The notes: a model not told the origin generated them from the sequence alone. DNA of 64,000 nt from Candidatus Nitrospira neomarina (GCF_032051675.1 NZ_CP116968.1:2046001-2110000); one strand, 5' to 3'. Shown: positions 42,522 to 60,828, counted from the stretch's first letter. Numbers and translations are program-made.

Positions 42522-42524
42522 CAC

Positions 42525-43691
42525 ATGCAAGGGTGGGGCTCTGGCCGACAACCAGCCAAACGACCAGCAGTTTGGCTGGCGGCTGGAGCTCTCATCATGC
42601 TTTCATTCCTGTTTGTTGCCTGGTGGAAGGCAGAACGCCTTCCCGAAATCTTCCCACCTCAGCTTGAATCGCTCGATCGCCAGGCTTGGAGCCACGGCGC
42701 GGAAGCCTATTTCCCGGAACGATATCGCACATTTCACCAGGACATCATCGATCTTCGAACGCAATGGCGGGGAGAACAAGCACGTTGGTGGACAACCACC
42801 GACACTTATACACTTCAAGCAACCTACCAACACCTGCTGCAAGAGGGCTCGACCCTTCTGAAGGCCTCCACACACCAAAAATTCACCCGGCACCAGCAAC
42901 TGACAACCGTTCTGGAGTCTGAACGTCGCCAAGTCACCCGTCTCCGTGCATTAACCGGTATATTTGATGTTCGACGAAACCTACGGACCCTATCGGGAAC
43001 AGAGGGGCTACTGAACCAGGCAGCATCTCGACTCGCACAAGACAGCGATAAGCAAGCCCTTATTCTCCTCAGACAGGCAAGAGAATCTCTTGTACCCGTC
43101 GAGGCTCAAGCCATTTCCCAAATGGAACGGTATGGGACCGTCTCACAACTGGCCACGTGGAACCATTGGGTCACCAACACCCTGGATTGGTCTTCAAAGA
43201 CAGGTGGCACAGCTATCGTGGTCATTAAAGCCTCCCGCCACCTCGTCGTCTATCGGAATGGAAAACCGCTACGCCGTTTTTCTAGTGATCTCGGCTTTTC
43301 AGGACTTCAGGACAAGTTGCAGGAAGGGGATGGCGCGACGCCGGAGGGACAGTTTCGTATTCTGCAAAAGAAAGGACCGGGATCCACCAAATTCCATAAA
43401 GCCCTTTTACTCAATTATCCCACCGATGCCCATCGTCAACGCTTCCAGGAGGCCAAGAACAAGGGAGGCGTGGCGGCACACCGCGGCATCGGAGGCCTCA
43501 TCGAAATTCATGGCCAACAACCCGATGGCAACAGCACAACGAATGGCTGCATCGCCCTCCATAATGCAGATATGGATGTCGTCTTTCATCTTGCGGAAGA
43601 AGGGACTCCGGTGACAATCGTCGGGGCCCTACAACCGGACAATTGGGTGGTAAAAACGCTTGGTGACATCACCAACCATGCGCGCCAATGA
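42525..43691 (+). CDS. L,D-transpeptidase with an N-terminal helical domain
   Basis: A 388-residue membrane-anchored enzyme. The signal anchor is VWLAAGALIMLSFLFVAWW. Residues about 40-215 are a charged helical domain without a name I know. The YkuD domain covers about 230-370, with GDGATPEGQFRI, EIHGQQPDGN and TTNGCIALHN: His329 and the catalytic Cys342. These enzymes make 3-3 crosslinks or attach proteins to meso-DAP in the periplasm. The stop of DUF4398 is 3 bp away. The domain order is the same as in its paralogue at 59617, down to SLDRQAW near residue 47. Confidence 0.9.
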   Translation: MQGWGSGRQPAKRPAVWLAAGALIMLSFLFVAWWKAERLPEIFPPQLESLDRQAWSHGAEAYFPERYRTFHQDIIDLRTQWRGEQARWWTTTDTYTLQATYQHLLQEGSTLLKASTHQKFTRHQQLTTVLESERRQVTRLRALTGIFDVRRNLRTLSGTEGLLNQAASRLAQDSDKQALILLRQARESLVPVEAQAISQMERYGTVSQLATWNHWVTNTLDWSSKTGGTAIVVIKASRHLVVYRNGKPLRRFSSDLGFSGLQDKLQEGDGATPEGQFRILQKKGPGSTKFHKALLLNYPTDAHRQRFQEAKNKGGVAAHRGIGGLIEIHGQQPDGNSTTNGCIALHNADMDVVFHLAEEGTPVTIVGALQPDNWVVKTLGDITNHARQ

Positions 43692-43753: not shown

Positions 43754-44290
43754 TTAAGGTGGTGCATTCGACAGGGAATTGTCGGATGACCGCTGCACCC
43801 GCTTTATCAACATTTGGGGTTCTACCAGTTCCACATCATTGAGATCACGCAACTTTGCAATACTATTAAGCGCCGTGGCAATATTTCCGTCCCGGCTCCG
43901 AAGCCATGCGGCATGAGGTGCATAGGAAAGTGATTCACGAATGGAGAAGCCACACGCTTCAATTTCTTTTTGCCGAACCTCGACAGAAATCTGTGGCCGG
44001 AAACGAATAAACACATTGCCGGACGGCACTCCTTGCGGACCATTGGGCTCAAGACGATAGACCGGTGTCACTATCAGGTCGGATGGAAACTCCGACAAGG
44101 CCGAAATCTCACCTCGGCACACGTTGATGACCGGATCATTAAAAGAGTACAACACCGAAGTATTCAAGGCCGGAGGCACTGACCCATGAACCGCAAAGCA
44201 GTCAGATTCACGAACATAGACACGGGACAAGGCTTGGGCCTCTACCCTCATCCTGAGAGGAAAGGAAGAAAAGAGATCGTTCACAGCCAT
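43754..44290 (-). CDS. Stand-alone subtilase-propeptide-like protein
   Basis: About 178 residues (start uncertain: ATG at 44290, others at 44251 and 44332). Its C-terminal half (NVFIRFRPQISVEVRQKEIE, then ACGFSIRESLSYAPHAAW, then DVELVEPQMLIKR) matches, position by position, residues about 110-180 of the divergent subtilase (ENLFAKFDDDLAESTCRKIL, then KACGLRIKRVLEYA, then HVELCHPELVRQ). No protease domain is present. It has no clear signal peptide. Subtilase propeptides fold and inhibit their protease; a separate copy could be an inhibitor or chaperone for the neighbour. The two genes start 70 bp apart in opposite directions. Confidence 0.68.
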   Translation of the reverse strand: MAVNDLFSSFPLRMRVEAQALSRVYVRESDCFAVHGSVPPALNTSVLYSFNDPVINVCRGEISALSEFPSDLIVTPVYRLEPNGPQGVPSGNVFIRFRPQISVEVRQKEIEACGFSIRESLSYAPHAAWLRSRDGNIATALNSIAKLRDLNDVELVEPQMLIKRVQRSSDNSLSNAPP

Positions 44291-44360
44291 GAGCCATTCT
44301 ACGAAGGAATGCGAAGCAAGTCCACGCATCATTGTGTAGTCAAACAGAAGGAGAACACCC

Positions 44361-46328
44361 ATGCTGTCATTTCGTTATGGAGGACAAAACGGGAAAGCGT
44401 TCAAACTGAAAACCGATGAAGAGCTCGTGGTGGTGCGAACGGAGAGTCGTCGACCATTGGAAGCCGCCGCTCAGTCAACGCGAGCTCGGCAGGCACTGGA
44501 CAATCTTGAGCCCGTGCACCGGTTTCACCATGCCGGCGTGGAAATCTTTCGATATCCCCAAGCCGTTCGACGCGCAAGCGCGCGAGGAGCCATCCGCACC
44601 ACCATACAATCCGTAAAAGACGTCCAATTTGCCGGACGAGTCCTGGTCGACCCTCAATCAAAACAACCTGTTCTGTACACTGAAAATCTTTTCGCAAAAT
44701 TTGATGATGACCTGGCGGAATCCACTTGTCGGAAAATCCTAAAAGCCTGCGGACTTAGAATCAAACGGGTGTTGGAATATGCTCGCAATACCTTCTTTAT
44801 CGAAGCGCCAGAGGGCACAGGACAGAAAGTGTTTGCCATAGCCGAGAGTCTCTTGCAGCATAAACATGTGGAGCTCTGCCACCCTGAACTTGTCAGACAA
44901 ATGGGATGGCGCACAGCGTTCCCACAACAATGGCATTTAAAAAAGACCACGATTGATGGAACGGTCTATGATGCCCATGCCAACGTGGAGGCAGCCTGGG
45001 CACTCAGTGAGGGAGAGAATATCACTATCGCAATCATTGATGACGGCATGGATCTTGATCACGAAGAGTTTGCCGGTTCAGGAAAACTTATCGCTCCTCG
45101 CGACGTAACTCGCGCCACGGACGATCCTCGACCCGGCAGCCGGGATAATCATGGAACCGCCTGTGCAGGCGTCGCCACCGGCAACGGTTTTCATGGTGCC
45201 TCCGGAGTCGCTCCCAAAGCCCGATTAATGGCCATCCGGTATGTATCTCCGTTAGGCTCACAAGCCGAGGCTGATGCATTTATCTGGGCCGCCCAACATG
45301 GCGCGGATGTCATTTCCTGTAGCTGGGGTCCGGAGGATGGCGCCTGGTGGGATCCGCGCGACCCGCTCCATCACACCGTCGTGCCCCTACCGGATTCCAC
45401 TCGTCTTGCTATTGATTGGGCCGTCGCGAATGGACGCAACGGAAAAGGCTGTGTGATCACCTGGGCCGCCGGAAACGGCAACGAAAGTGTCGATAACGAT
45501 GGTTATGCCAGTTATGAAAAAGTAATTGCCGTGGCCGCCTGCCACGCCAAAGGGAAAAGGAGTGCCTATAGTGATTTCGGCAAGGCAATTTGGTGTACCT
45601 TTCCCAGCAACGATACCATTCTCCCCATCCCGGGAATCTGGACCACCGATCGCTCAGCATCAGCAGGATATAATCCCGGACAAGTCAGTCGAGGCGATGC
45701 GGCAGGCAATTATGTCAACGATTTTGGCGGCACATCAAGCGCATGTCCCGGTGTCGCCGGGGTGGCCGCCCTCATTCTCGCTCGCAACCCTTCCCTGCGA
45801 TGGGATGAGGTCAAAGATCTGCTCAAACGCTCGTGTGATCAAATTGATCCAAGCGCTGGCAGATATGACACCAACGGCCATAGCACCTTATATGGGTATG
45901 GCCGGATCAATGCCAAACGTGCGGTAGAATTGGCTGCACCGGCCATTCCAACTCCCACCACTGTGCATACCTCAACCGCCATCATTCCCATTCGCGACCT
46001 TCAAACGTCACAACTCTCTCTTCAAGTGGCCGAGACCACCCCCCTTACCTCCGTCAAGATCGGAGTGGATATCGAGCATTCGTATATTGGTGATTTGATC
46101 ATTAAGGTGGTACCCCCCAATTCAACAGGAGTATCGTCCATTGTGCTCCATAATCGAATTGGAGGCGGCACAAATAATATTCACACCACCTATGATGTCA
46201 CCACGACCCCTGACCTCCTGGCATTCGTCGGCAAAAATCCAAAGGGAAAATGGTCCCTGACGGTTCAGGATAAAGCAAAACTTGATACCGGGCGCATCTT
46301 ACAGTTTTCAGTGACCCTGATTTTCTGA
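44361..46328 (+). CDS. Subtilisin-like serine protease (S8) with P domain
   Basis: A 655-residue protease. The ATG follows AGAAGGAG. Residues 1-180 are an N-terminal pro-region (VVVRTES, then NLFAKF...CGLRI). The S8 domain has Asp227 (AIIDDGMD), His264 (DNHGTACAGVATG), the oxyanion Asn (AAGNGNES) and Ser459 (GGTSSACPGVAG). The C-terminal P domain (proprotein-convertase type) has VKIGVDIEHSYIGDLIIKV and GKNPKGKWSLTVQD. I see no signal peptide, so secretion must use another route, or the enzyme acts inside the cell. The divergent propeptide-like gene is its likely partner. Confidence 0.87.
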   Translation: MLSFRYGGQNGKAFKLKTDEELVVVRTESRRPLEAAAQSTRARQALDNLEPVHRFHHAGVEIFRYPQAVRRASARGAIRTTIQSVKDVQFAGRVLVDPQSKQPVLYTENLFAKFDDDLAESTCRKILKACGLRIKRVLEYARNTFFIEAPEGTGQKVFAIAESLLQHKHVELCHPELVRQMGWRTAFPQQWHLKKTTIDGTVYDAHANVEAAWALSEGENITIAIIDDGMDLDHEEFAGSGKLIAPRDVTRATDDPRPGSRDNHGTACAGVATGNGFHGASGVAPKARLMAIRYVSPLGSQAEADAFIWAAQHGADVISCSWGPEDGAWWDPRDPLHHTVVPLPDSTRLAIDWAVANGRNGKGCVITWAAGNGNESVDNDGYASYEKVIAVAACHAKGKRSAYSDFGKAIWCTFPSNDTILPIPGIWTTDRSASAGYNPGQVSRGDAAGNYVNDFGGTSSACPGVAGVAALILARNPSLRWDEVKDLLKRSCDQIDPSAGRYDTNGHSTLYGYGRINAKRAVELAAPAIPTPTTVHTSTAIIPIRDLQTSQLSLQVAETTPLTSVKIGVDIEHSYIGDLIIKVVPPNSTGVSSIVLHNRIGGGTNNIHTTYDVTTTPDLLAFVGKNPKGKWSLTVQDKAKLDTGRILQFSVTLIF

Positions 46329-46836
46329 TGGAGCCCTGGCCCGGCCAGTGGCAATAAACTTCGATCACTTTCTGGAGAGGTATTGCCCTTCTTTCAGACA
46401 AATTCCGTCTAATCAAGTCACGGGCTGCCGTCGCAAAATCACCCCGGCTATCCAGGCAATCGGGGAATAATGGACAATAGATCGCAAATTATTCGAAATG
46501 GGAGAGAGCATATCTTTACTGATTGAATGAGTTTCCCCCTCTATATACGGAGGGAATCTATGCGTCCCGGCTTCACACCCCACGAGCAAAAATTATTTGG
46601 TGTTCAAAAAAAGCCGCATTTTCCCTTGTGATTCCAGCCTTCAATACGTAAAATCCAGAGGAAACGAAACATTCACACTTGTGAGGGAATTTTCCTGGAT
46701 GGAGACAGGAAGGGTTTCTTGGGCATTAATCACAAGTTGGTCTCAAGCCACTCCGGCATGTGAGTCCGGCGTTCCCTCTTAGCGAGCTTCTCCAAATTGT
46801 CAGTATTCCGTTGAAGAAATCGCAAAGAGGACTCCT
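46329..46836. other. Intergenic region
   Basis: About 510 bp. The open frame at 46597-46782 has no start signal. It should carry the promoter of the NHL-protein gene, whose site AAAGAGG is at 46823-46829. Confidence 0.5.
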
Positions 46837-49008
46837 TTGAAAAATATTTTCCTCCCACTTTCCAGCTTCTATCTTTCAAGCACATTCAGCGTTCTTCTGT
46901 TGACTGGCGTCCTTATAGCTCCTTACCAATCTTTAGGATTTGAAAAAGTGGAGTACGTCCAAGAATTTCGCGCGGGACTTCAAGAACCCGTCGACGTCGC
47001 CCTTGCCGTTAATGGCGATGTGTATGTGTTAGACAAAGAAGCTTCTAAGATCTTTGTCTTTGATGCTTCCGGGAAACCTAAATTCGACTTTGGGAGACCA
47101 GGTTCCGACCCCGGCCAATTGGACGAGCCCGAATCACTTGCCATTTCTCCAAAAGGCCAGGTGTTTGTGGCGGACACAGAAAATGACAGGATTCAGGCCT
47201 TCGATGCTTCTGGGAAATTTTTATTTCACTTCGGATCCTCCGGCAATCAACCGGGCCAGTTAAATAATCCATCCGGGTTGGCCATCGATCAATTTGGAAT
47301 GGTCTTCGTAGCCGACCGAAAAAACCAACGGATTCAAAAGTTCAGCTATCGCGGCATTTTTTTGCAGGCCTTTCCACTAGACACTGCCCCAATAGACATT
47401 GCCATCGATCCAGAAGGAAATGTATTTGCCTTGGTGCCCGGCAAACCGGAAATTGTCAAAATTTATCCCCATACGCAAAAACGGGAATGGGTCTTTCAAT
47501 CCGTCCAGAAGCCTGACTTCCTCAGTTCGGGAAGAGGCATGGCCGTAGACATAAAAGGAGATGTGTATATCAGCGAACGATCTGATCACAGCATTAAAAA
47601 AGTGGATACAAAAGGTAGCCTGCTGGTGACCTTTGGGTCAGGGGGTGAAGGACGGGGCCAATTCGATGACCCCAGCGGGTTGGCTGCTGATGAACAAGGG
47701 AATATCTATATCGCCGATTCCGACAACCATCGGGTGCAAGTGTTTCATGTGGCAGGAAGTCAGAAGCACACCATGATGGTTCAAACCCTATCTCCGCCGA
47801 TTATCGAATTCGAGTCCCTACTCAAGGCTGAGGAGGCCATCACAGACCTCTTTTATGTCCCAACAAAAGGGCTGCATGTTCTCTCTCAGGAGCGGGATCA
47901 TATTCTGCGAATCGGCTCCCCAAATCAGGTATACGGAAGGGAAGGAACTAAACCAGGGGAATTTGATGCTCCCATGGCTTTGACAGCCTCTGCAGATGGA
48001 ATACTGGCGGTAGCGGATACCGGCAATGATCGTGTGCAACTACTCGATCCAGAAGGGGCCTCTTTAAACCATTTTGGCAAATCAGGAGAAAAAACAGGAC
48101 AATTCGATGAACCGGCCGGCATTGCCATCAGCAAGAAAAATTTAATCTATGTGGCCGATACGGAAAACCATCGAATACAAATTTTTAATTCGGAGGGCAT
48201 TTTTCTCACGAGTTTTGGCCAGGAAAGTGACAAAATTACACCACAGACACCGGAACATGGAAAATTTAATAATCCAACATCTCTGGCAATCAACTCACAA
48301 CACCAGGTGTATGTGTTGGATGCCAACAATCACCGAGTGCAACTGTTCGAGGAAGAAGGACAGTTTATCAAGGTGATCGGATCAAAGGGCCGGAACCCAG
48401 GCCAATTCCTGGAACCCGTTGATATCACCGTGGACGAACAGGACCATCTCTACGTCGCCGATCGGGGAAATCATCGAATTCAAGTGTTTGATTCCCAAGG
48501 CCACCTTATTTTCATGTTTGGTACATCAGCAGCAAAGCAGATATTCGGGTTTTCATTTTGGGCGCATCCAGAGTCCCAACCAGGAAATTTCCCCACGTTG
48601 TCTTCGATTGCCGCGTTCCAAGAAAAGGTCTATGTAGCGGATTTTCATTCCGAGCATATCCAGGTTTTCCGGTTTTATCCAACCGGCTTGGTCAAGGAGG
48701 AGCGATTTTTTCTAACCAAGTCCGCTTTCCCTCCTCATGAGGGCTCCAAAGATGCGACAGAATCACAACGCTTAGCCCAGGAATCAGCTCTCCAGCAAGC
48801 CTTGGAGGAATTGACCGTGAAAACCGGACTAACGAAAATTCAACTAAAAAACGCTCTTCGCATTGAACGGATCGAATCACTTTCCACTGGAGCGATTCAA
48901 GTAACGGTCAGCGTACCAAAGCAATTCGTTAGTGGGGACCCGTCTAACAAACCTTCAGATCCGGAAAAAGAAGAGCCCACGAAATCTGAGGAGTTTATTC
49001 TGCAATAG
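46837..49008 (+). CDS. Exported NHL-repeat propeller with a C-terminal FlgT/LPP20-like domain
   Basis: A 723-residue protein initiated by TTG, with AAAGAGG 8 bases upstream. The signal peptide ends about VLIAPYQSLGFEK. Then come at least ten NHL-type blades of about 45-50 residues, each with patterns such as GQLDEPESLAISPKGQVFV and VADTENDRIQAFD, so two propellers of six or more blades are likely. The last 80 residues have a different fold: RLAQESALQQALEEL followed by a beta segment (GAIQVTVSVP). That is the pattern of the N-terminal domain of FlgT/LPP20, found also in the 54859 gene. NHL propellers bind proteins or sugars. First gene of a four-gene block. Confidence 0.78.
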   Translation: MKNIFLPLSSFYLSSTFSVLLLTGVLIAPYQSLGFEKVEYVQEFRAGLQEPVDVALAVNGDVYVLDKEASKIFVFDASGKPKFDFGRPGSDPGQLDEPESLAISPKGQVFVADTENDRIQAFDASGKFLFHFGSSGNQPGQLNNPSGLAIDQFGMVFVADRKNQRIQKFSYRGIFLQAFPLDTAPIDIAIDPEGNVFALVPGKPEIVKIYPHTQKREWVFQSVQKPDFLSSGRGMAVDIKGDVYISERSDHSIKKVDTKGSLLVTFGSGGEGRGQFDDPSGLAADEQGNIYIADSDNHRVQVFHVAGSQKHTMMVQTLSPPIIEFESLLKAEEAITDLFYVPTKGLHVLSQERDHILRIGSPNQVYGREGTKPGEFDAPMALTASADGILAVADTGNDRVQLLDPEGASLNHFGKSGEKTGQFDEPAGIAISKKNLIYVADTENHRIQIFNSEGIFLTSFGQESDKITPQTPEHGKFNNPTSLAINSQHQVYVLDANNHRVQLFEEEGQFIKVIGSKGRNPGQFLEPVDITVDEQDHLYVADRGNHRIQVFDSQGHLIFMFGTSAAKQIFGFSFWAHPESQPGNFPTLSSIAAFQEKVYVADFHSEHIQVFRFYPTGLVKEERFFLTKSAFPPHEGSKDATESQRLAQESALQQALEELTVKTGLTKIQLKNALRIERIESLSTGAIQVTVSVPKQFVSGDPSNKPSDPEKEEPTKSEEFILQ

Positions 49009-49115
49009 GGACAACACTTCTAAACTCCACCTTCTCGGGCTAAGGAGCTGCAGAGAGGAAATGTTTTTCATTTTCCTGAAAAGCCTAAGCCCTAAATTTG
49101 GTATGGGAGAAAGTG

Positions 49116-51395
49116 ATGAATAATCAAGGACGGATTGCCACTCGCATAATCGTTGGTCTCTTATTGGTGCTGTTTGGAAGTGGGTGCGGGTCAATAAAGG
49201 AGAGCTTCGATGGGGCCACCTCAACCCTCACGGAGGGGATAGACAATGCGACATCAGCAATTGGACTGGGGAATGACGAGGCTTATGAAGAAGGAAAAAC
49301 TTATTTAGAAGCTCAAGCCTATGATCAGGCTATTTTGAAATTTGAGGAAGCACTAAAAGAGAACCCGGACGACACCAGGATTCAAACTGATTTGGCTCAA
49401 GCCAAATCCTTTGCCGCAGCCCAACACTTTGAACGGGGCAAAGCGCTCACAGAGAAGCACGAAATCAACGGGGCCTTAATCGCTTTCGAAAAAGCCACAT
49501 CTTACCAACCGGCCAACACCACCTACGCCACACGATATCAACAAGAAAAGGAGAAATACGCCAAGTTAAAAGGAGAGATACTCCGGCTTGTCCAGGAAGG
49601 GGAGGAGTCGAAACAATGGGATCAGAGTATCAGGGGGCTGGAATCGATGAAACGATACGAGTCCTCATTTCCGGAATTGGCCACCCACATTCAGCATACC
49701 CGCCAACAAGCCTCCGAATACCATGAAGGTCGATCTGATGCACATCTTCATCAGCAAGCCTTTCAAGAGGCGGCCCAGGAAATTCAAAAAGCCGCTGAGT
49801 ATGACCAAAATTCCTCTATCAGTCTCAAGAATAAGGCGCGACATCATTTGTTATTAGCTAAGCAAGCCTGGGACCAGAACAAGTATTTCCTGGGCTACGA
49901 AGAAATGCAGAAAAGTCTGGAATTTGAGCCACAGAACCCGGAAATTAAAAAATTCCACGCCCATCTGGTCGACCAGTGGACGGATATCCTTTACAACGAA
50001 GCGGTTCAAGATCAGAACACGGGAAACTTACAGGGGGCAAAGGACAAGCTTTCTCGGATTTCCAAGCTCAAGCCGGGATATCTCAATGTGGAATCGCTGT
50101 TATCGGAGTTGCAAGGAAATTTAGCGGCGACCTATTACACCAAGGCCGACTCGCTTATGCGGCAAGAGGATCGTACTCGTCTGGGATTGGCCCTAGCCAA
50201 TTATTTAATCGTTCGTGAACAGCATGATTCCCAATACCAGGACCTAGAGGAGAAAATCGCCCTGGTCAAAAAAATGCTGTTGGAAGAAGTCCAACTGCGG
50301 ATAGCCGTGCACTTTGACAATAAATCCTCCGAGTCTGGTGCCGGAGGGGTGGTCTACAATCAACTATTAGATCGCTTGCGAAACTCGGAAAGACTGAAAA
50401 ATTTGACCCTGATTGACCGGGAAGTGATCGATCAAATTCTACAGGAGCAGGCTCTGGGACAGGGATTTTTGGATCCGTCCACCAGTCCACAGGTTAAAAA
50501 AATAAAGGGTGCGCATGGAGGAATTTTCGGCGAAGTCCTGAGGGCCAGAGTCAAAGAAACCGGGAGAGATCAACCGACATTCGGCAGCTCCACCTATGTC
50601 AGCGGGACCCGATTGGTCCCGAACCCAGAATATGAACCGAGAAGACAGGCAGTCGGCTCGGCTCGACAGGATATGGTCCTTGCCCAACAGGAATTGACCA
50701 ACGCCGAAGTCCAATCCAAACAGAGTCAAGCCAACATGATGGCAACGCAGCAGCAACTGAACCAATCGCCAGGATCTCAAAAAAGTCAGGCCCCGATAGC
50801 CATTGGAAGCATTCTGCAGGGGCTGGGTTCGGTGGCCGGAGTGAAAGCGGCACGTTCGCGGCTTACGAATGCACAAAATCGATTACGATTTTCGGAGGAT
50901 GAGCTTGCCCGCACCCCTCCCACACTTGAAGAAGAAATCACTGATAGTTTTCGCTATCCCATTTATGATCTCAAATTAGAGGGAGAGGTGATGCTAGCTT
51001 ATCGCTTTGTGAATTTCACCACCTCTGAAGTGGGAGATTCTAAAACCATTACTAAAACCGATGAAATTTTAGACCGCTACGTACAGGGGGATCCCGGGAA
51101 AGGAGTCAATAGCGACCCCAATGAATTGCCCGCCAAAGAAGAATTTCTTCAGAAGCTCCTAGCCCAAGCCATTGAAGGGGCCGCTCAGGCCATCGAGGAT
51201 AAAATGGCGAATTTTTCGGAGTCCTACTATGAAGAAGGGAAAAAAGCCGAAGAACATGGGTTGGAAGAGGAGGCTATTGAAAATTATATGCGGTATATGT
51301 ATTCAACCTCCGATCTTAGCGCCTCAACCGTGCAACATGCCAATCAATATATTTATGACAAAATGGGTGTACTCATTATCCGTCGGAAAACGTAG
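49116..51395 (+). CDS. TPR lipoprotein with CsgG-like domain
   Basis: A 759-residue lipoprotein-like protein; the ATG at 49116 follows GGGAGAAAG. The signal ends FGSGC with Cys at residue 24. Residues 50-360 hold TPR-like helical repeats (AYDQAILKFEEALKENPDD). Then comes a CsgG-like domain: LRIAVHFDNKSSESGAGG, LLDRLRNSERLKNLTLIDRE and DQILQEQALGQGF (a typical CsgG/curli-secretin 'dre-l...q' segment). A helical linker follows, then a beta strand segment (YPIYDLKLEGEVMLAYRFVN) and a last TPR-like helix pair. CsgG-type proteins form outer-membrane pores or regulate surface structures. It sits between the NHL propeller and the 1134-residue protein. Confidence 0.75.
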   Translation: MNNQGRIATRIIVGLLLVLFGSGCGSIKESFDGATSTLTEGIDNATSAIGLGNDEAYEEGKTYLEAQAYDQAILKFEEALKENPDDTRIQTDLAQAKSFAAAQHFERGKALTEKHEINGALIAFEKATSYQPANTTYATRYQQEKEKYAKLKGEILRLVQEGEESKQWDQSIRGLESMKRYESSFPELATHIQHTRQQASEYHEGRSDAHLHQQAFQEAAQEIQKAAEYDQNSSISLKNKARHHLLLAKQAWDQNKYFLGYEEMQKSLEFEPQNPEIKKFHAHLVDQWTDILYNEAVQDQNTGNLQGAKDKLSRISKLKPGYLNVESLLSELQGNLAATYYTKADSLMRQEDRTRLGLALANYLIVREQHDSQYQDLEEKIALVKKMLLEEVQLRIAVHFDNKSSESGAGGVVYNQLLDRLRNSERLKNLTLIDREVIDQILQEQALGQGFLDPSTSPQVKKIKGAHGGIFGEVLRARVKETGRDQPTFGSSTYVSGTRLVPNPEYEPRRQAVGSARQDMVLAQQELTNAEVQSKQSQANMMATQQQLNQSPGSQKSQAPIAIGSILQGLGSVAGVKAARSRLTNAQNRLRFSEDELARTPPTLEEEITDSFRYPIYDLKLEGEVMLAYRFVNFTTSEVGDSKTITKTDEILDRYVQGDPGKGVNSDPNELPAKEEFLQKLLAQAIEGAAQAIEDKMANFSESYYEEGKKAEEHGLEEEAIENYMRYMYSTSDLSASTVQHANQYIYDKMGVLIIRRKT

Positions 51396-51410
51396 TGGGG
51401 ATATTCCGGT

Positions 51411-54400
51411 ATGGGTAGAAAGACCAAATGGGTTTCTTCCATTAATGAAAACCCGAGGGACCCACACTCCATGACCGTACACGAACAATGGCATGAACAA
51501 CCTTGGTCATCCATGAAAGGGATCGTGAGTCTCTCTGCTTTTGTGGTTTTGCTCTCTTTGTACGGGTTAGCCATGGGGGTTGAAACCGAGAAGCCTGGTG
51601 AATACACCATTTTGGATGCAGACCGGCACCTTAAGACGATACTAGGGGAATTGCCGATCTATGAACCCACCACCAACACATTTACTCCCGCAGTTCCCCC
51701 TTCATCAACGCTTAAACAGGCAGTCACCAATCTCGAACCCGAATGGAATCGACTGTATGACAACAGCGATCTGCACGATGTCCCGCCGCCCGGACGGGCT
51801 AACATACTCCAACGCTGTGACGATCTGAAGAAACATCTTACAGGGCCTATTCAGACCAAGCATACATTGGAGACTGAACGGCTCACACTCGAACAGCGGG
51901 AACGCTTCGTGGATAGTGCTCGCAAACAAGTCGAATTACGAAATTGGACGGAATTTGTCTTTGCCATGGGCAACCTGGGGAAGGAGGCGTTTAATTCTTT
52001 CAAAAAGATCCTTTCCCCTTCTCCGAAAGATGTGAAAAAGCTGTATGAAGCCCTTGCCCTTGTCAAAAAAATGATTCAGAGTGCAAGAAAGCCCACGGTC
52101 AAGAATCCCGGGGGCACGGCAATTAACTCGGCAGATGCTATAAAACTTGGCGAGAATGGGAACAAGTATTTTGTTGAAAAGCAAGCCGAGATCACTAAGA
52201 GAGTCAATGACTATATCATGAACCGCAAATTCACCGAGAAGGAATTACGAAACCCTGAGCAGATTCAAAAGGAAATTTTCATTCTTATCCGTGATTACCT
52301 CAAGTCTCTGGCAGTTGCTGAGCGCGGTGACCTTCGACTACGGATTCAACAAATCGATATAGAATTAAAAAAATACGCACAAATTACCTTGCCTGCGGGA
52401 GCCTTTAGTTTTGTTGAGTACGAACCCCTGTGTAAAAAGATTCGTGATCTCAAAGATTGGAATATTCGAACCATAGAAGGGTTGAGAATTGACCCGCCAA
52501 AAGTCCGGATCGAAGTAGGAGAAACAACAAAACAGTTTAAGGCCATTGGAAAATATTCTAGTGGAAAAGGAAGAGAGGTGGACGTCACCGACATGGTGAA
52601 TTGGCCTAAAGGTCATTCCTTTACCGGAAACAAGCCAGGAAAGTTCACTTTAACAGCCGAATATCGGAGTCTCACGAGCACTGCTGAAATTATGGTCGTT
52701 CCCTCTACACAGCCGGTGCCTTCCGCAGCCCACCCCACAGGGAAATGTCCCGCGGGAAAAATCGAAGTGCCCTATGTCATACGAATGCAAAAGACGAATG
52801 CAGAAGGTGTTGTGAATGGCCTTGGTCTGCGCTTACCGGTCGTAGGGCAAGAGCCGAGCAACCATTTCAATCCTGGTGAGATCACGGACCAGGTTCCGTA
52901 TGCAGGCGATTGTGTCGACCCGAATACGGAAATTAAGGTCAAACTTGCTTTGGAAGTACCTGACGCACCCGTAGGCCCATTCCGTGCGGAATTGAACTGC
53001 GGGAGAGCTATAGAAATAGAGGCCGGGGCTGAGCCTTCAAGGATATGTGGAATCGTCGTGCGGGGATGGAAGCCTGAGGGAAAGGTTTCTGTCACTGTAA
53101 CACCGATTCCAAAGCGCAGTGGAATACGGATTTTCCCGGGAGACATGTCACAAGAAGCCTTCAATATGCATACCACCGGTCCCTCGGATTTTCATGACAG
53201 GTATATTTTCGAACAGCTCATCAGTGCGAAGGGGATTGCTCAGGAAGGAGTGACCACTATCGTTTTTGATGTGAGCCAGGAAGGGTACGGCCGAGTAAGC
53301 CTCCCTTTGAATATTTCGGTCTTACCAAGCGGACGGGCTCCAAGTCGCGGCGGAGGCGTGCGACCACCGGTTGAACCGGCAACGGGTTCTTCCGAAGGCC
53401 TCTATTGTGTCTGGCGATCCAAGTCATTCGGAGATGGTCCAAACTGCTTTGATATTAATCGCGCTCAATGTGACAATCCGAGGTATGCCGGAAACCCAAA
53501 GTATGAGCGGGTAGGTTCAGGCTTGACGCCCATTGAGTCAGCAGCCTTGGCTTCCCGGCTAAGCCCTTATAAAGGCGATGCCTATGGCTGCCGTAGCAAC
53601 ACCTCGGGCAATTCAGATCCAGAAGGAGGCCATGATCCCGGCGGAGGGGCAGGTACTGGTGAGGGACAAGGTGCGGGTGGGACATCAGGCTCTGGCAGTG
53701 ACGGAGACACCGGAGAGGATGCGGGCACTGGAGACGGTGCAAGCATCGGAGAGGGTGAAGGCACTGGGGAAGGCGAAGGCACTGGAGACGGTGAAGATAC
53801 CGAAGAGAACCAGGCAGCGAATGGAGGGGAAGAAGATAGCGATTTGTTAGCAGGATTTCCAGACGTACCAGGGGATGCACCACCGACTGATGATGGGCCG
53901 ATAACCCCCGAACAGGCCGAAGCGGTGGAAGGGTTTGGAGAGAATGGCTCCACCAGTCACTTGCCCCCTTCTGACCCGGATCAGATGGTCAGCGATGATT
54001 CAGATGCCACGCCCCCCATGGATATCGCCGCAGTGGCCCAAGCCGACAAAGACCAAGACGAAGCCCGCAATCGCGACCGGGAAGGAATCCAGAGAGAGGC
54101 AGACCGACAAGCGGGTAACGATCGCCAAAGGATTAATCAACAAAATGCGCAAGACCGACAAACACAGGACGCGGCGGCCCAGCAAGGAGTGGCACAAGCG
54201 CAAGCCCAAGGGCAAGTGATGATCGATCAAACCAACCAGAATGCCGATCCCATTATGAGCGGTCAGGATATGGCCGGAGCCATCAATACAATTCAGCAAG
54301 AAGGGGATGACAAGATCCAAGCCATTGATGATCAAATTCGCCAAGGGTTAGGGGGAAGTGGTCAAGGAGCCGGAGGATCGGGATCTACCCGCCAGCCTCT

Positions 54401-54815
54401 ACCACCACCCTCTTCAATGGGAACAGGCCCGGTGGACACCGCCGTAGTCCAGTGTAATACGAAGTATGGTTCAGGAGGTGATAATCCTGGCTTTTTCACG
54501 ATCGACTTTAATGGAGCAACCGGGGTGGCACAATTTGTATATGATACCGAAAGCATCAAGGATGAAATGGAAGTGAATGCGGGAGGGGCTTCTTTTAATA
54601 CGACATGCCGTAGTAACGGCGAAAAAGTGCCCATCACGATCCCATCGCCGAACACGCCGGTGACTGTGACGGTGAAGCCCAATTGTGCGTGCAAGAAATC
54701 AAAATGTACAGGGACCAGTTGGAGTTTCACCTTTCATTGTCCCAACCAAGCCGGATCGCCAAACGGGGGGCTATTACCGAGAGGAAATCCTACTGGGGGT
54801 CTTTTTGGGCAATAA
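51411..54815 (+). CDS. Large multi-domain exported protein of unknown function
   Basis: A 1134-residue protein. A hydrophobic segment (residues about 37-55, GIVSLSAFVVLLSLYGLAMG) serves as a signal or anchor after a long N-terminus. Then a helical region (60-370), a Big2/Ig-like part (RIDPPKVRIEVGETTKQF), and a PASTA-like domain around residue 455 with VPYVIRMQKTNAEGVVNGLG and FNPGEITDQVPYAGDCV. Then beta domains with Cys (ELNCGRAIEI, YCVWRSKSFGDG). Residues about 738-803 are a Gly/Glu/Asp/Thr repeat (GEGEGTGEGEGTGDGED). A Gln/Arg/Asp-rich helix (876-980) and a Cys-rich end (PNCACKKSKCTGTSW) follow. No known protein matches the whole. It starts 15 bp after the CsgG-like gene. Confidence 0.65.
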   Translation: MGRKTKWVSSINENPRDPHSMTVHEQWHEQPWSSMKGIVSLSAFVVLLSLYGLAMGVETEKPGEYTILDADRHLKTILGELPIYEPTTNTFTPAVPPSSTLKQAVTNLEPEWNRLYDNSDLHDVPPPGRANILQRCDDLKKHLTGPIQTKHTLETERLTLEQRERFVDSARKQVELRNWTEFVFAMGNLGKEAFNSFKKILSPSPKDVKKLYEALALVKKMIQSARKPTVKNPGGTAINSADAIKLGENGNKYFVEKQAEITKRVNDYIMNRKFTEKELRNPEQIQKEIFILIRDYLKSLAVAERGDLRLRIQQIDIELKKYAQITLPAGAFSFVEYEPLCKKIRDLKDWNIRTIEGLRIDPPKVRIEVGETTKQFKAIGKYSSGKGREVDVTDMVNWPKGHSFTGNKPGKFTLTAEYRSLTSTAEIMVVPSTQPVPSAAHPTGKCPAGKIEVPYVIRMQKTNAEGVVNGLGLRLPVVGQEPSNHFNPGEITDQVPYAGDCVDPNTEIKVKLALEVPDAPVGPFRAELNCGRAIEIEAGAEPSRICGIVVRGWKPEGKVSVTVTPIPKRSGIRIFPGDMSQEAFNMHTTGPSDFHDRYIFEQLISAKGIAQEGVTTIVFDVSQEGYGRVSLPLNISVLPSGRAPSRGGGVRPPVEPATGSSEGLYCVWRSKSFGDGPNCFDINRAQCDNPRYAGNPKYERVGSGLTPIESAALASRLSPYKGDAYGCRSNTSGNSDPEGGHDPGGGAGTGEGQGAGGTSGSGSDGDTGEDAGTGDGASIGEGEGTGEGEGTGDGEDTEENQAANGGEEDSDLLAGFPDVPGDAPPTDDGPITPEQAEAVEGFGENGSTSHLPPSDPDQMVSDDSDATPPMDIAAVAQADKDQDEARNRDREGIQREADRQAGNDRQRINQQNAQDRQTQDAAAQQGVAQAQAQGQVMIDQTNQNADPIMSGQDMAGAINTIQQEGDDKIQAIDDQIRQGLGGSGQGAGGSGSTRQPLPPPSSMGTGPVDTAVVQCNTKYGSGGDNPGFFTIDFNGATGVAQFVYDTESIKDEMEVNAGGASFNTTCRSNGEKVPITIPSPNTPVTVTVKPNCACKKSKCTGTSWSFTFHCPNQAGSPNGGLLPRGNPTGGLFGQ

Positions 54816-54858
54816 CGACAAAAAAAACTTATTCCTTAACAATGGACAAAGGCTTTCC

Positions 54859-56100
54859 TTGAAAACGAATTGGACTGCCATCGACCTATTATTGGGGTAC
54901 ACCTCCAGTAGAAAACCCATACATGCCTTGTTGTACGTTGTGTTGATGTTGTGGTGTACCTTCCCATACCTTTTTCCACCTACCGTACTCGCTGAAACTT
55001 TCACGACATTTTCCGGAAAGGGGTCCGCTATAGTGATTGAGGGCAATCAGTCGCGTGCCCAAGAACTGGCCCACCAATCGGCTTTAAGAAAAGCGATTTC
55101 CCAGGCTATAGAAAGTGAAATCCAAAAAGGTACAAAGGAAGAGCTTCAGTACCAGGTTAAGAAAGTCGGCCTGCTGAAAGAACCCTATCCCTACCTGATG
55201 ACCCAAAAAGTCATTGAGTCCGGAATGGAAGGCAAACTGTTGACGGTGTCCTTGGAAATTCAAGTGGATTCTGAGGCTCTCACCAGATTCCTTGGACAAC
55301 AGGGAATTCTTGCAGAACGGATGGAGGAACAGAAACGAAAAGAATGGCCGATGATCATGGTCCTAGTCGGAGAGGAAATCAACGGCAAGGAACATCGCCC
55401 ATCATTTTGTGGCACGATGCTAACGAAAACCTTACTTGGCGAAGGATTCTCTTTGGTTGACGAAGAGGCCATTCAACGAAGCATCCAACATGATCAAGCT
55501 GTCCAAAGCCTATTAAGAGGGAATCAGAAAGCCGCCGCGGCCATGGCATTACAATATGGAGCAGGCATTGTCATTTCCGGACGAGCGGTAGTCACCAAGT
55601 CCGGATTAAAATCAGGCCCCATGCAAGTGCATGGGGCCAATGTCACCTTACAAGCACTTCATTCTGATTCAGGGGAAATCTTCGCTTCGGCCATCGGGGA
55701 TGGCTTCTATCCACATGTAAATATGATAACGGGTTCACAGAAAGCCGTAGAGGAGGCCACGCAGAAGGCACTAAAAAGTCTTCTTGAAGACTTTCAACGA
55801 CAATTAGAAACCTCGGCCTCCACACTCCTGGTTTCCATTAGCGGGATTACCTATGGGCAGCTGGCCTACCTAAAAAAAATTCTTAGAGAAAATTCCCGTT
55901 TCCCTAATTTGACCGATATTCAACAAAAAAGTTTTCAGGGGCAAGTAGCTAAACTTCAATTCACCATTACCAACAGCCCACAAGAGTTTACGGATCGTCT
56001 CGCCACCTATGATTTTCAGAAATTCGCCCTAAATGTCCTCAGCTATTCTCCACGAAAAGTTGATTTTGCCCTGAACCTGAAGCCCTTTTCCTCCCGGTAA
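54859..56100 (+). CDS. Exported FlgT/CsgG-like protein
   Basis: A 413-residue protein. No ATG fits; TTG at 54859, 7 bases after AAAGG, starts a signal peptide (RKPIHALLYVVLMLWCTF, ending PTVLAETF). The first domain (GKGSAIVIEGNQSRAQELAH, then SALRKAISQAIESE) is of the FlgT/LPP20 N-terminal type. It is followed by a CsgG-like fold: IMVLVGEEINGKEH, LLGEGFSLVDEEAIQRS, YGAGIVISGRAVV, DSGEIFASAIG. FlgT and LPP20 are outer-membrane-linked proteins of flagella or the cell surface. No flagellar gene is near, so it more likely belongs to the local block. It lies 43 bp after the 1134-residue gene. Confidence 0.7.
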   Translation: MKTNWTAIDLLLGYTSSRKPIHALLYVVLMLWCTFPYLFPPTVLAETFTTFSGKGSAIVIEGNQSRAQELAHQSALRKAISQAIESEIQKGTKEELQYQVKKVGLLKEPYPYLMTQKVIESGMEGKLLTVSLEIQVDSEALTRFLGQQGILAERMEEQKRKEWPMIMVLVGEEINGKEHRPSFCGTMLTKTLLGEGFSLVDEEAIQRSIQHDQAVQSLLRGNQKAAAAMALQYGAGIVISGRAVVTKSGLKSGPMQVHGANVTLQALHSDSGEIFASAIGDGFYPHVNMITGSQKAVEEATQKALKSLLEDFQRQLETSASTLLVSISGITYGQLAYLKKILRENSRFPNLTDIQQKSFQGQVAKLQFTITNSPQEFTDRLATYDFQKFALNVLSYSPRKVDFALNLKPFSSR

Positions 56101-56551
56101 AGAGGTTGAGCCCCATCCGCTTCCCCGTCCCCAGAAAACCTGTGTGTAAAAGAAGAAAAGGTATCTCGTCCATTTTCACGCATGTCTCGTGAGGACGGCC
56201 TTTCGGAGATTTTTTCAATCAGGCTTGATCTGCAGAAAACTCTCCCATTATATTTGCCATACCAAGATGGCAATTCTAGTCGATTGTTGTAAAGCTACCT
56301 GCTTTCCCATTACTCGCCACAACCGTGCTCATTCCTGCACACTCGTGAACGTTCACTCTCCCCGCTCAACAGCAGTTAACCAACTTGGAATGATGAGTTC
56401 TTTTTTATTCTCGGTCGTCACATCCAAGGTCAACGGAAACTGATCTAAAACCAAAAATGTTTTTCCCTGCATGGAGTCGGACACGACCATGTCCCAAACT
56501 TGCCGGGAGATCCCGGCGATATGATTAACACTTTTCTCTAAGGAGGTTCCT
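56101..56551. other. Intergenic region
   Basis: About 450 bp. Open frames on both strands lack ribosome sites. No hairpin of note. It carries the site CTAAGGAGG of the next gene at its end. Confidence 0.5.
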
Positions 56552-57118: not shown

Positions 57119-57471
57119 CGCTATGGCACGGGCTGAAATGGCAAGCAGGCCCTCTCTTCTCTGCCTTCTCTGGCAACCGCCAAAGGGGGCAGAGACCACG
57201 GGTCCGCTACACGCCATACCCAGCAGCCAACCAGTCCCCCAATCGGGCTTGAAGCTCTGGAGTGCTCAGGACAGGACAGATGCATTCGAGAAAACAGCTC
57301 ACAGGAATGCTTTTTCAGCTCACGGTTCTAAGGAGAAACGACAGCGTTTCTTTTTGCCACGATTTCTTCTACAATTTCCATGGAATCTGCTTTCCCGAGA
57401 AAGTCGAATCCGTTGTCTCACAGCGTTTCTTTCTATTCGTTAAACAGAGTTCTTCCCCAATAGATTGTCTC
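57119..57471. other. Spacer before the YkgJ-like gene
   Basis: The frame of the next gene is open from 57262, so a longer N-terminus is possible, but no start or ribosome site supports it. No other feature. Confidence 0.45.
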
Positions 57472-58251
57472 ATGGAATCTTCTACCCCTCACGAATCCTA
57501 CAACCTGGATATTCACACCCCTGCCGGACATCTGACGGCGTCGGTTGCGGTACCGACCGGATTCATTCTCATTACCGACATTATCCCCCTCATGCAATCA
57601 CTTGGAGAACAAGCTCACCAGCTGGCCATCGACAACACCACTCAAACCGGTGCCACCATATCCTGCCAAAAAGGCTGCGCCGCCTGCTGTCGCATGATGA
57701 TTCCCGTCGCCCCTCCGGAGGCCCTTGCGCTCCTGTCGGTTGTTGAAGCCCTCCCTTCTCCGAAAAAGGAGCGGTTGCTTGAGCGATTTCAGGCGGCTCA
57801 AAGGACCTTGCGTGAGGCCGGCCTGGAGGAGGGGTTACAACGATTGGCTTTTTCTGAGGATCAAGGCACCGATGAAGAATTGGAACCTCTTAATCGGGCG
57901 TACTATGCGCTGCGAATGCCCTGTCCATTTCTGGAAGATGAAATCTGCTCAATCTATGAACAGCGGCCATCCGCCTGCCGGGAATTGCTGGTCACTTCCC
58001 CTGCGGAACTTTGCCAAGACTTGATACGAAACCCCATCCAACTGATTCCTTCCCCGTTTCGAATCGGGACGGTTCTGAGCAAACTTTGGACGGATTGTTA
58101 CCAGGGCCCGGTTCGTCTCATTCCCCTCCCCTATGCACTGGACTGGGCCACAGTCTATAAAACCCAGAACACCCGAACCTGGGCCGGGCCTGAACTGCTG
58201 AGCCGGGCCTTGGATGCCGCGGCGCAATATTTACAACGCCAATCCCCCTAA
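57472..58251 (+). CDS. YkgJ-family cysteine-cluster protein
   Basis: A 259-residue protein. A zinc- or iron-sulfur-type cysteine cluster is visible: SCQKGCAACCRMM near residue 65, then PCPFLEDEICSIYEQRPSACR near residue 150, and ELCQDL. These match the YkgJ (DUF/UPF0153) signature CxxxCxxCC plus CxFLxxxxCxIYxxRPxxCR. The family function is unknown; it may bind metal or an Fe-S cluster. The ATG at 57472 has no ribosome site. It lies alone. Confidence 0.83.
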   Translation: MESSTPHESYNLDIHTPAGHLTASVAVPTGFILITDIIPLMQSLGEQAHQLAIDNTTQTGATISCQKGCAACCRMMIPVAPPEALALLSVVEALPSPKKERLLERFQAAQRTLREAGLEEGLQRLAFSEDQGTDEELEPLNRAYYALRMPCPFLEDEICSIYEQRPSACRELLVTSPAELCQDLIRNPIQLIPSPFRIGTVLSKLWTDCYQGPVRLIPLPYALDWATVYKTQNTRTWAGPELLSRALDAAAQYLQRQSP

Positions 58252-58937: not shown

Positions 58938-59603
58938 GTGACTGAAAGAATCCAAATCAACGCTGGCTGGAAATCCCTCAACGGGCACATACCTCGAACC
59001 CTTGACCTTCCCTGGGGCAGACATGCGCTTTTCCTGACCTGGCTGCTCTTGACCGGTTGCGCAGAACCGCCTATCTCCCAATTGAACGCAGCCACCCAAG
59101 CTCTTGAAGACGCGAGAATATCAGAAGCCGAACATTACGCAATCGAGAGATTCGCTGAAGCAGAAACGGCATTTCGACAGGTACAACAAACGCTGGATCG
59201 ACAGGAAGATCGGATGCCGCTCTTTCGTAATTATGATCCTGTCATCACAATGCTGTCGGAAGTCTTCAACAGCGCAACCCAGGCCAAAATCGAAGCCATT
59301 GCCAATAAAAAGGAGTCCAAAGCCAATGCCGAGGTGGCTCTCGCCTTTGCCAAGCAGCATCTTCAAGATGTTCGTGCGCTCCTGGCAGACGTTTCCGCTC
59401 ACACGCCTGATCACGGGGAGCTGGACCAACTTCTACAAGCGTTTCAGGACACGGAAACCCTCCTCGCTGAAATCGAATCCATTATGGCACAAGAACACTT
59501 CATCGACGTGATGACCACCTCCCATTCCGTAGAATCTTTTGCCACTCGAATTCAAGCACAGATTATCTCTGTCAAACGGCTTGCCGCAAAGCAACACGTC
59601 TAA
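58938..59603 (+). CDS. DUF4398-like lipoprotein (second copy)
   Basis: A 221-residue lipoprotein starting with GTG. The signal is long, with LFLTWLLLTGC giving the lipidated Cys at residue 41. The mature helix bundle has LNAATQALEDARISEAEHYA near its start, the DUF4398 pattern seen in the 41904 protein, and shares FRNYDPVITML and IESIMAQEHFIDV with TRNYDTANAIL and IDAIMAMEDYIGV of that copy. The next gene is an L,D-transpeptidase 13 bp on, as in the first copy. AAGGA lies 13 bases before the GTG. Confidence 0.83.
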   Translation: MTERIQINAGWKSLNGHIPRTLDLPWGRHALFLTWLLLTGCAEPPISQLNAATQALEDARISEAEHYAIERFAEAETAFRQVQQTLDRQEDRMPLFRNYDPVITMLSEVFNSATQAKIEAIANKKESKANAEVALAFAKQHLQDVRALLADVSAHTPDHGELDQLLQAFQDTETLLAEIESIMAQEHFIDVMTTSHSVESFATRIQAQIISVKRLAAKQHV

Positions 59604-59616
59604 CAATGGGGAATGT

Positions 59617-60828
59617 ATGATCACTCCGCCAACCAGGTTTCAGTCGGCCTGGCGTCGGCGCTGGATGATCACGCTCATGCTGGTCCTGCTTCCAGCGTTG
59701 ACGTTTGCCTGGTGGGGCCACACGGACTATCCCGACACGTTTCCTTCACTGGTCGAAGATTTGGACCGACAGGCGTGGGTAAACGGCGCAGAGACCTTGT
59801 TTCCTGATCGATATCAACAATTCCATACACAAGTGCTCGAGCTCCGTTCCCAATGGCGGACAGAGGCCAATCACTGGTGGACAACCGGCGACGCAGAACA
59901 GTTCAACCAGACCTATCAACAACTGGTGGAAGAAGGCTCTCTGCTGATTGAAGCCTCTCGCCAAAAAATCACTGCCCTGCGCTTGGAGGCCGAGGAGCTC
60001 CTTCAGCCTGAACAGGCGCAACTCACACGGTTGCGAGCGCTTTCTCATGATTTCGACCTGGAGGACGACATGCTGGCACTGTCCCAGGCAGAGGGATTGC
60101 TTCGAGAAAGTGTGTTGAGATTGGAGCAGGGACAATACATGCAGGCCAGGTCAGCCGGAGAGCAGGCAATTGAACATCTCCGCCGCGTGGAAGCCCATGT
60201 CGTCACACAAATGAACCGCTATACAAACGAAGCCCAAATTGCCCGCTGGGAAGAATGGGTCACGCAAACCATACAACGATCAGTGGGCACAGCCGTCATT
60301 GTCCTCAAGGCACCCCGTCGCCTTCTCGTCTACCAACACGGCCGGGTCGTTGCGGAGTATCCGGCACGGGTGGGATTTTCAGGATTGGCCGACAAGCTTT
60401 ACGAGGGAGACGGCGCCACGCCGGAAGGACAGTTTCGCGTGATGCACAAAAAAGAAGGACCGGGGACCATCTATTATAAAGCGTTACTCTTGGACTATCC
60501 CACGATAACCCACCAACAACGTTTCGACGAGGCCAAAGCCAATGGCCTGGTACCTCAGAACCGGTCAATCGGCAGCCTGATTGAAATTCATGGCGAAGAT
60601 CCCAATAACGAAGAAACCACCAACGGGTGCATTGCCTTGGAAAATTCCGCGATGGGTGACGTATTCGAGCGGGTAAAAGTCGGGACGCCTGTCACCATCG
60701 TAGGGGCACTGAACCAGGACAATGACGTCGTGACCTCCTTACACCAGCTGGAAGTCCATATTCAGGAACGGTATGTACGGTGGCACAAACCCCGTACGCG
60801 TGCCGCCTCCTTCGCCCGCACAGAATAA
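59617..60828 (+). CDS. L,D-transpeptidase with an N-terminal helical domain (second copy)
   Basis: A 403-residue paralogue of the 42525 protein. The ATG at 59617 follows GGGGAATGT. A signal anchor (MITLMLVLLPALTFAWWG) is followed by a helical domain that shares the segment EDLDRQAWVNGAETLFPDRY with the first copy. The YkuD domain has GDGATPEGQFRVM, IEIHGEDPNN and TTNGCIALEN, with catalytic Cys338. The two copies differ in the helical domain more than in YkuD. A third L,D-transpeptidase follows 1 bp later. Confidence 0.9.
   Translation: MITPPTRFQSAWRRRWMITLMLVLLPALTFAWWGHTDYPDTFPSLVEDLDRQAWVNGAETLFPDRYQQFHTQVLELRSQWRTEANHWWTTGDAEQFNQTYQQLVEEGSLLIEASRQKITALRLEAEELLQPEQAQLTRLRALSHDFDLEDDMLALSQAEGLLRESVLRLEQGQYMQARSAGEQAIEHLRRVEAHVVTQMNRYTNEAQIARWEEWVTQTIQRSVGTAVIVLKAPRRLLVYQHGRVVAEYPARVGFSGLADKLYEGDGATPEGQFRVMHKKEGPGTIYYKALLLDYPTITHQQRFDEAKANGLVPQNRSIGSLIEIHGEDPNNEETTNGCIALENSAMGDVFERVKVGTPVTIVGALNQDNDVVTSLHQLEVHIQERYVRWHKPRTRAASFARTE

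What the first reader, a model, noticed from the sequence alone, without database searches (positions are those of the whole stretch)
46837..56100. Four-gene envelope block: NHL propeller, TPR/CsgG-like lipoprotein, 1134-residue protein and FlgT/CsgG-like protein
Seen directly: four same-strand genes with gaps of 15-110 bp. The first and fourth share a FlgT/LPP20-type domain (C-terminal in one, N-terminal in the other). The second and fourth carry CsgG-like segments, and the third is a large exported protein with PASTA- and Ig-like parts. Known: CsgG forms outer-membrane pores for curli, and FlgT/LPP20 are surface-structure proteins. Inference: an outer-membrane assembly or secretion machine with an exported propeller and a 1134-residue client or scaffold.
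Basis: partly seen in the sequence, partly recalled or inferred. Interest (0 to 1): 0.68.

Follow-up and report, generated by a model that had tools for sequence, protein, structure and literature searches.

The report
Envelope gene block with swappable cargo
A block of four exported-protein genes in a marine nitrite-oxidizing bacterium keeps three envelope genes constant while the large third gene is exchanged between relatives for a completely unrelated giant protein, which suggests an outer-membrane apparatus that handles interchangeable surface or secreted proteins.

Summary
The four genes are real and form a unit, but the pore claim is not supported. Genes 1 (NHL propeller), 2 (lipobox, TPR, CsgG-like domain with a coiled-coil insertion) and 4 (FlgT-like fold: LPP20/FlgP-like N domain, CsgG/PelC/TolB-N-like middle domain) are constant. 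In two relatives of the same genus (Nitrospirales MAGs NPIRA03 and NPIRA06), DNA identity of 96-98% stops exactly at the gene-2 stop codon. What follows is an exported RHS/YD-repeat protein (>1615 aa), unrelated to the 1114-aa PASTA/Ig-like protein here; identity resumes at gene 4. A third relative has a mosaic with another C-terminus, and a fourth keeps this type without PASTA. The whole ~10-kb block is absent, as a clean empty site, from three other same-genus genomes, one of them complete. Synonymous sites in genes 1-2 are more alike (85-97%) than in the flanking gene (72-76%), so the constant genes spread recently by recombination while the cargo changed. Best reading: a lineage-restricted outer-membrane display/export module for exchangeable large exported proteins, probably for cell-cell recognition or antagonism. 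The transport mechanism is inferred.

The parts
46329..56220 (.). present/absent block: four-gene unit between a subtilase gene and a UPF0114 gene; absent in G018, G013 and G019
   Evidence: homology of G018/G013/G019 stops at 46326-46332 and resumes at 56375-56532 (weakly from ~56224), with only 0.4-0.5 kb between in those genomes
46837..49008 (+). gene 1: exported protein of NHL repeats, 723 aa; constant
   Evidence: (NHL 242 bits; Teneurin-NHL 81 bits); orthologs in G003, G016, G030
48640..49005 (+). gene 1 tail, proposed FlgT/LPP20-like; not confirmed
49098..51395 (+). gene 2: TPR plus CsgG-like lipoprotein (likely ATG start 49116; lipobox Cys30); constant
49272..50111 (+). gene 2 TPR solenoid (residues 59-338)
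   Evidence: (mostly pLDDT 70-95)
50298..51233 (+). gene 2 CsgG-like domain (residues 401-712)
50631..50912 (+). long helical hairpin (residues 512-605) inserted within the CsgG-like domain; absent from the distant homolog in G008
51396..54908 (+). variable cassette: DNA identity to G003/G016 ends at 51394/51391 and resumes in G016 at 54909
51471..54815 (+). gene 3: exported 1114-aa cargo (ORF open from 51411): N-terminal region, Ig-like segment, PASTA, Gly-rich and Q/A-rich linkers, Cys-rich C-terminal domain
52470..52697 (+). gene 3 Ig-like (bacterial Ig group 2-like) segment, weak
   Evidence: E 0.008
52761..52946 (+). gene 3 PASTA domain (missing from the G030 homolog)
54426..54743 (+). 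gene 3 C-terminal Cys-rich domain, conserved in G030, replaced in G009
54919..56100 (+). gene 4: exported FlgT-like protein (N domain LPP20/FlgP-like, middle CsgG/PelC/TolB-N-like, C domain); constant; exact start uncertain

Best explanation
A lineage-restricted envelope module of three constant proteins and one exchangeable large client. SHOWN: the constant genes keep their order, slot 3 is swapped with sharp borders, and the block has empty sites. INFERRED: all four proteins leave the cytoplasm by Sec. The lipoprotein (gene 2) sits at the inner face of the outer membrane and, together with the FlgT-like protein (gene 4), forms a periplasmic collar or scaffold, as CsgG, PelC and FlgT relatives do. 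This collar receives the large client (gene 3) from the periplasm and holds or passes it to the cell surface, and the NHL propeller (gene 1) binds the client or its ligand. Clients are replaced by recombination that uses the conserved flanking genes, as expected of surface proteins under diversifying selection (cell-cell recognition, antagonism, or evasion of predators or phages).
For: Order g1-g2-X-g4 in G030 (complete, one contig), g1-g2-RHS in G003 and G016, X-g4 in G009. Slot 3 is unrelated by BLASTP: RHS with 15 repeat stretches (283 bits) and an RHS core domain above cut-off (80.2 vs 32.5), against the PASTA type here; the window genome has no relative of this RHS protein anywhere at E 1e-3. 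DNA identity of 98.3% and 95.8% ends at 51394 and 51391, the gene-2 stop; in G016 it resumes at 54909, gene 4. Empty sites in G018, G013 and G019. 4-fold-site identity: g1 91-96%, g2 85-97% versus 72-76% in the adjacent subtilase gene. Fold of g4 = FlgT, its middle domain = CsgG/PelC/TolB-N; g2 CsgG-like. Gene 4 is the only FlgT-family match in the genome and G018 has none, so it is not a shared flagellar FlgT.
Against: No contact between the proteins was tested. No pore can be seen in gene 2 or 4. The RHS-g4 junction is not on one contig (G016 assembly gap), and g4 of G003 falls in a gap. The RHS examples come from two MAGs of one series. Shared expression is assumed from gene spacing; the promoter and terminator scans were no better than chance.
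Confidence: 0.5

Rival explanations
1. Polymorphic-toxin locus: slot 3 proteins are contact-dependent toxins (an RHS shell in one form), and genes 1, 2 and 4 export or display them.
For: Sec-exported RHS protein with a core domain followed by a >430-residue tail; C-terminal replacement between the G000 and G009 forms; bacterial teneurin-like RHS proteins are surface toxins without known delivery machinery (PMC13018210).
Against: No room for an immunity gene between gene 3 and gene 4 in G000 (about 100 bp) or G030 (142 bp); no toxin domain found in gene 3 or in the readable RHS tail; no match of the RHS protein in PADLOC.
Confidence: 0.2
2. Envelope sensing or cell-wall scaffold: gene 3 (PASTA) binds peptidoglycan and the TPR/CsgG/FlgT proteins stiffen or monitor the envelope; no export function.
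For: PASTA domain, LpoB/PelC/TolB-like folds, L,D-transpeptidase genes nearby.
Against: PASTA missing in the only full-length homolog; the slot is filled by RHS proteins in close relatives; the transpeptidase genes lie outside the present/absent block.
Confidence: 0.15
3. Cell-cell contact module like the Myxococcus outer-membrane-exchange accessory factor TraC: gene 2 helps process or operate a polymorphic surface receptor (slot 3).
For: Gene 2 matches the TraC model (NF040658), its best-scoring stretch being in the C-terminal part (48 bits over the whole protein; residues 584-745 to model 421-583), and the G008 homolog 61.8 bits; TraC is a TPR OM lipoprotein acting with a polymorphic receptor (PMC8546572).
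Against: Far below the family cut-off of 500 bits; other TPR proteins of the genome score higher through TPRs; no TraA/TraB search was done.
Confidence: 0.1
4. Misassembly: the apparent swap is an artefact of fragmented MAGs.
For: RHS loci come from two fragmented MAGs of one series with contig ends inside or next to the locus.
Against: Two MAGs with non-identical sequences (RHS N-part 96% identical) both join g2 to RHS on one contig; G030 and the complete window genome show contiguous four-gene loci; G009 adds a third form.
Confidence: 0.05

Closest known systems
FlgT of the Vibrio flagellar H ring (3w1e, 8z5n), with the LPP20/FlgP-like N domain (Campylobacter flagellar scaffold, 9hmf)
   Same: Gene 4 has the same three-part fold order; Foldseek best hit 3.8e-9 and N-domain sequence match to 9hmf_C, E 2.4e-6
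   Different: Not next to flagellar genes; Pfam FlgT_N below cut-off (17.6 vs 28.8); close relatives found only in genomes that have this block
CsgG / PelC / GNA1162 / LpoB family of envelope lipoproteins (PF03783 and relatives)
   Same: CsgG-like domain in the gene 2 lipoprotein and same fold in the middle domain of gene 4
   Different: TPR solenoid in front, helical hairpin inserted, second transmembrane hairpin not recognisable; no curli genes among the neighbours that were scanned
TraC, outer membrane exchange accessory lipoprotein of Myxococcus (NF040658; PMC8546572)
   Same: TPR lipoprotein with weakly similar C-terminal part
   Different: Far below cut-off; adds an NHL and a FlgT-like partner gene and a cassette of cargo
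Bacterial teneurin-like and other exported RHS/YD-repeat proteins (PMC13018210)
   Same: The RHS-type locus encodes an NHL propeller and a YD shell together
   Different: On two separate proteins, with dedicated TPR-CsgG and FlgT-like partners; the slot can also hold a non-RHS protein; no immunity gene seen

Membership tests
CsgG family (PF03783) | CsgG domain above Pfam's gathering score | tested here: met
   Gene 2 ortholog in G030 26.1 bits vs 20.8; distant homolog in G008 38.1; window copy itself 18.9, just below
CsgG family (PF03783) | lipid anchor | tested here: met
   Only one Cys, residue 30, after a hydrophobic leader, invariant in all five aligned homologs; by sequence only
CsgG outer-membrane pore | two transmembrane beta-hairpins per subunit | tested here: inconclusive
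   AF2 model shows long strands 472-508, 609-639 and 644-662, but region confidence is mixed and the last strand is 42% charged; no multimer run
FlgT | FlgT fold (N, M and C domains) | tested here: met
   Best Foldseek hit 3w1e E 3.8e-9 over 395 columns; VIA Z 10.8 over 210 residues (rmsd 10.3, so domains match better than their packing); M domain Z 10-12 to PelC/CsgG
FlgT | Pfam FlgT_N above cut-off | tested here: not met
   17.6 bits vs 28.8
FlgT | linked to flagellar genes | tested here: not met
   Adjacent genes are subtilase, L,D-transpeptidase and UPF0114
Myxococcus TraC (NF040658) | score above 500 bits | tested here: not met
   48 bits
Myxococcus TraC (NF040658) | co-occurrence with traAB | not tested
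   no search for TraA or TraB was made
RHS/YD polymorphic toxin (slot-3 alternative only) | RHS repeats and RHS core domain | tested here: met
   283 bits RHS_repeat; Rhs_assc_core 80.2 vs 32.5, in G016; absent from the window gene 3
RHS/YD polymorphic toxin (slot-3 alternative only) | toxin C-terminus plus immunity gene | tested here: inconclusive
   G016 contig ends inside the tail; in G000 and G030 (non-RHS) there is no room for an immunity gene before gene 4
Teneurin-like protein | NHL propeller and YD shell in one chain | tested here: not met
   They are separate genes

The most novel reading that the evidence does not exclude
Genes 1, 2 and 4 are a dedicated outer-membrane export/display apparatus, built from CsgG/FlgT-superfamily parts, that can carry unrelated giant exported proteins, including RHS/YD shells, with the NHL propeller supplied as a separate subunit ('split teneurin'). 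This would be a delivery route for a class of RHS proteins that now lack one.
Probability: 0.2. Interest if true: 0.82.

Novelty: new variant of a known kind. Interest (0 to 1): 0.56.

Why it matters
Some Sec-exported RHS/YD proteins, among them the bacterial relatives of animal teneurins, have no known delivery machinery (PMC13018210 says so for teneurin-like proteins). A locus that keeps a TPR-CsgG lipoprotein, an NHL propeller and a FlgT-like protein while exchanging an RHS shell for an unrelated large protein gives a concrete candidate apparatus and a natural experiment: the same machine genes with different clients in near relatives. It also suggests variable cell-surface biology in marine nitrite oxidizers, known mainly for their metabolism.

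Tried and rejected
(a) Flagellar H-ring component: rejected as the main reading; no flagellar neighbours, and the family is absent from G018. (b) FlgT/LPP20 domain at the end of gene 1: no support beyond a 31-column weak match. (c) PASTA as the defining part of gene 3: rejected, missing in the homolog. (d) Mobile element as carrier: no direct repeats at the block borders, no match of gene 2 or the gene 3 C-part in plasmids and none of gene 3 in viral contigs. (e) Anti-phage defence: only weak PD-T4-6 matches on the NHL and PASTA repeats, judged generic. (f) MFP-like (AcrA/MacA) helical hairpin in gene 2, Z up to 9.8: within the range of common helical arrangements, not used. (g) Finding more loci by protein with gene 3 alone in named genomes gave nothing. 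(h) Gene 2 model searched whole gives only TPR and helical hits; its CsgG part was not listed, which excludes nothing. (i) The rest of the G016 RHS tail was not found: gene 3's C-part has no match in G003 or G016. (k) Literature: no paper joins CsgG with NHL repeat, secretion and operon; papers for CsgG/RHS/NHL pairs showed no such locus in their titles or abstracts.

Full report
WHAT IS THERE. The window is G000:C1:2046001-2110000 of a complete 4.80-Mb genome; the only named relatives found are Nitrospirales MAGs (NPIRA06, NPIRA03, OFTM51). Four same-strand genes lie at 46837-49008, 49098-51395, 51471-54815 and ~54919-56100. Gene 1 is an exported NHL-repeat protein (242 bits; also Teneurin-NHL 81 bits). 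Gene 2 is a lipoprotein with TPRs and a CsgG-like domain (window copy 18.9 bits, just under Pfam's 20.8; G030 ortholog 26.1). Gene 3 is a 1114-aa exported protein with a PASTA domain and an Ig-like segment. Gene 4 is FlgT-like (below).

STRUCTURE. AlphaFold2 on gene 2 (mean pLDDT 65) gives a confident TPR solenoid (59-338) and a CsgG-like order of strands and helices (401-712) interrupted by a helical hairpin (512-605). The strand that would start the second CsgG transmembrane hairpin is 42% charged and no return strand is predicted, so a CsgG-type pore is not supported, though not excluded. AlphaFold2 on gene 4 (mean pLDDT 71) gives FlgT as best match (3w1e, E 3.8e-9, 395 columns; 8z5n 6.1e-9), with the middle domain matching PelC, CsgG, TolB-N and GNA1162 at Z 10-12. 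By sequence the N domain matches chain C ('Lipoprotein, putative') of the Campylobacter flagellar scaffold entry 9hmf (E 2.4e-6).

THE THIRD GENE IS A CASSETTE. In G003 (NPIRA06) and G016 (NPIRA03), same genus, gene 2 is 99% and 96% identical in protein, but the next gene is an unrelated exported RHS/YD-repeat protein (494 aa to the contig end in G003; >1615 aa in G016), with 15 RHS stretches and an RHS core domain above cut-off. DNA identity to the window (98.3% and 95.8%) ends at 51394 and 51391, at the gene-2 stop, and in G016 resumes at 54909, at gene 4. In G009 the contig begins inside a third form of slot 3: it shares the linker (35% over 195 residues) but has another Cys-rich C-terminus, followed by gene 4. 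In G030 (another genus of the family) all four genes are contiguous at about 50-65% identity, and slot 3 is of the window type but lacks PASTA. The window genome has no match to the RHS protein anywhere. Limits: the RHS-gene 4 junction in G016 falls between two contigs, and gene 4 of G003 falls in a gap.

PRESENCE, ABSENCE AND SPREAD. The block, or a recognisable part of it, occurs in 4 of 20 same-genus genomes searched and in one other genus of the family. A close gene 4 is found in 4 of 235 genomes of the order and gene 2 in 3 of 395 sampled from the phylum. In G018 (complete, 92% DNA identity in the flanks), G013 and G019 the flanks join: homology ends at the subtilase stop (46326-46332) and resumes before the UPF0114 gene (56375-56532), with only about 0.4-0.5 kb between. 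G009 has gene 4 followed by the same UPF0114 region, so the chromosomal site is shared within the genus. Fourfold-site identity to G003 and G016 is 91% and 96% in gene 1 and 97% and 85% in gene 2, against 72% and 76% in the adjacent subtilase gene; gene 4 of G016 is 55%. The constant 5' part has therefore moved between lineages recently while the cargo, and to a degree gene 4, changed. No border repeats and no plasmid or viral relatives were found. A FlgT-like gene beside or near a CsgG- or GNA1162-like lipoprotein gene recurs in other Nitrospirales without this cargo, so the gene 2/gene 4 pairing is probably the old core.

MECHANISM. Shown: constant genes, swapped slot, empty site, folds. Inferred: Sec export of all four; lipoprotein and FlgT-like protein as a periplasmic collar at the outer membrane; the large client held by or passed through it; the propeller binding the client or its ligand; selection for client diversity. 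The resemblance of gene 2 to TraC (PMC8546572) and the NHL-plus-YD pairing known from teneurins (PMC13018210) both point to cell-cell interaction, but neither is a membership: the TraC cut-off is not met, and NHL and YD lie on separate chains. A toxin role is possible for the RHS form, but no toxin domain was found and there is no room for an immunity gene in the complete (non-RHS) loci.

VERDICT. The new element is the exchangeable cargo slot between conserved CsgG/FlgT-type envelope genes in a clean present/absent block. I found no described system with this composition in the held papers I searched, but that search was limited, so I rate it a new variant of a known kind (variable exported-protein loci with envelope partners).

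Noticed in passing
41895-43691 and 58938-60828: Two paralogous gene pairs (small lipoprotein-like protein plus YkuD-type L,D-transpeptidase; 36% and 48% identical) stand on either side of the block.
   Followed up: partly
43754-44362 (-): A stand-alone ORF, divergent from the subtilase gene 44361-46328, resembles the subtilase N-terminal region (23% over 104 aa, E 3.6e-5): possibly an inhibitor or propeptide in trans.
   Followed up: partly
57125-57487: A second present/absent spot: G018 and G013 carry about 1.9 kb here that the window lacks.
   Followed up: no
48333-48418: Contigs of both NPIRA03 and NPIRA06 break at the same 84-bp stretch of gene 1, about one NHL repeat long; could be repeat variation or an assembly limit.
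   Followed up: no
L041, L042, L058, L059, L040: FlgT/LipL46-like protein genes lie beside or near CsgG/GNA1162-like lipoprotein genes in several other Nitrospirales.
   Followed up: partly
L040:3940-12960: In G008 the distant gene 4 and TPR-CsgG homologs lie near an 867-aa exported protein that looks peptidase-like by eye, perhaps another client arrangement.
   Followed up: no
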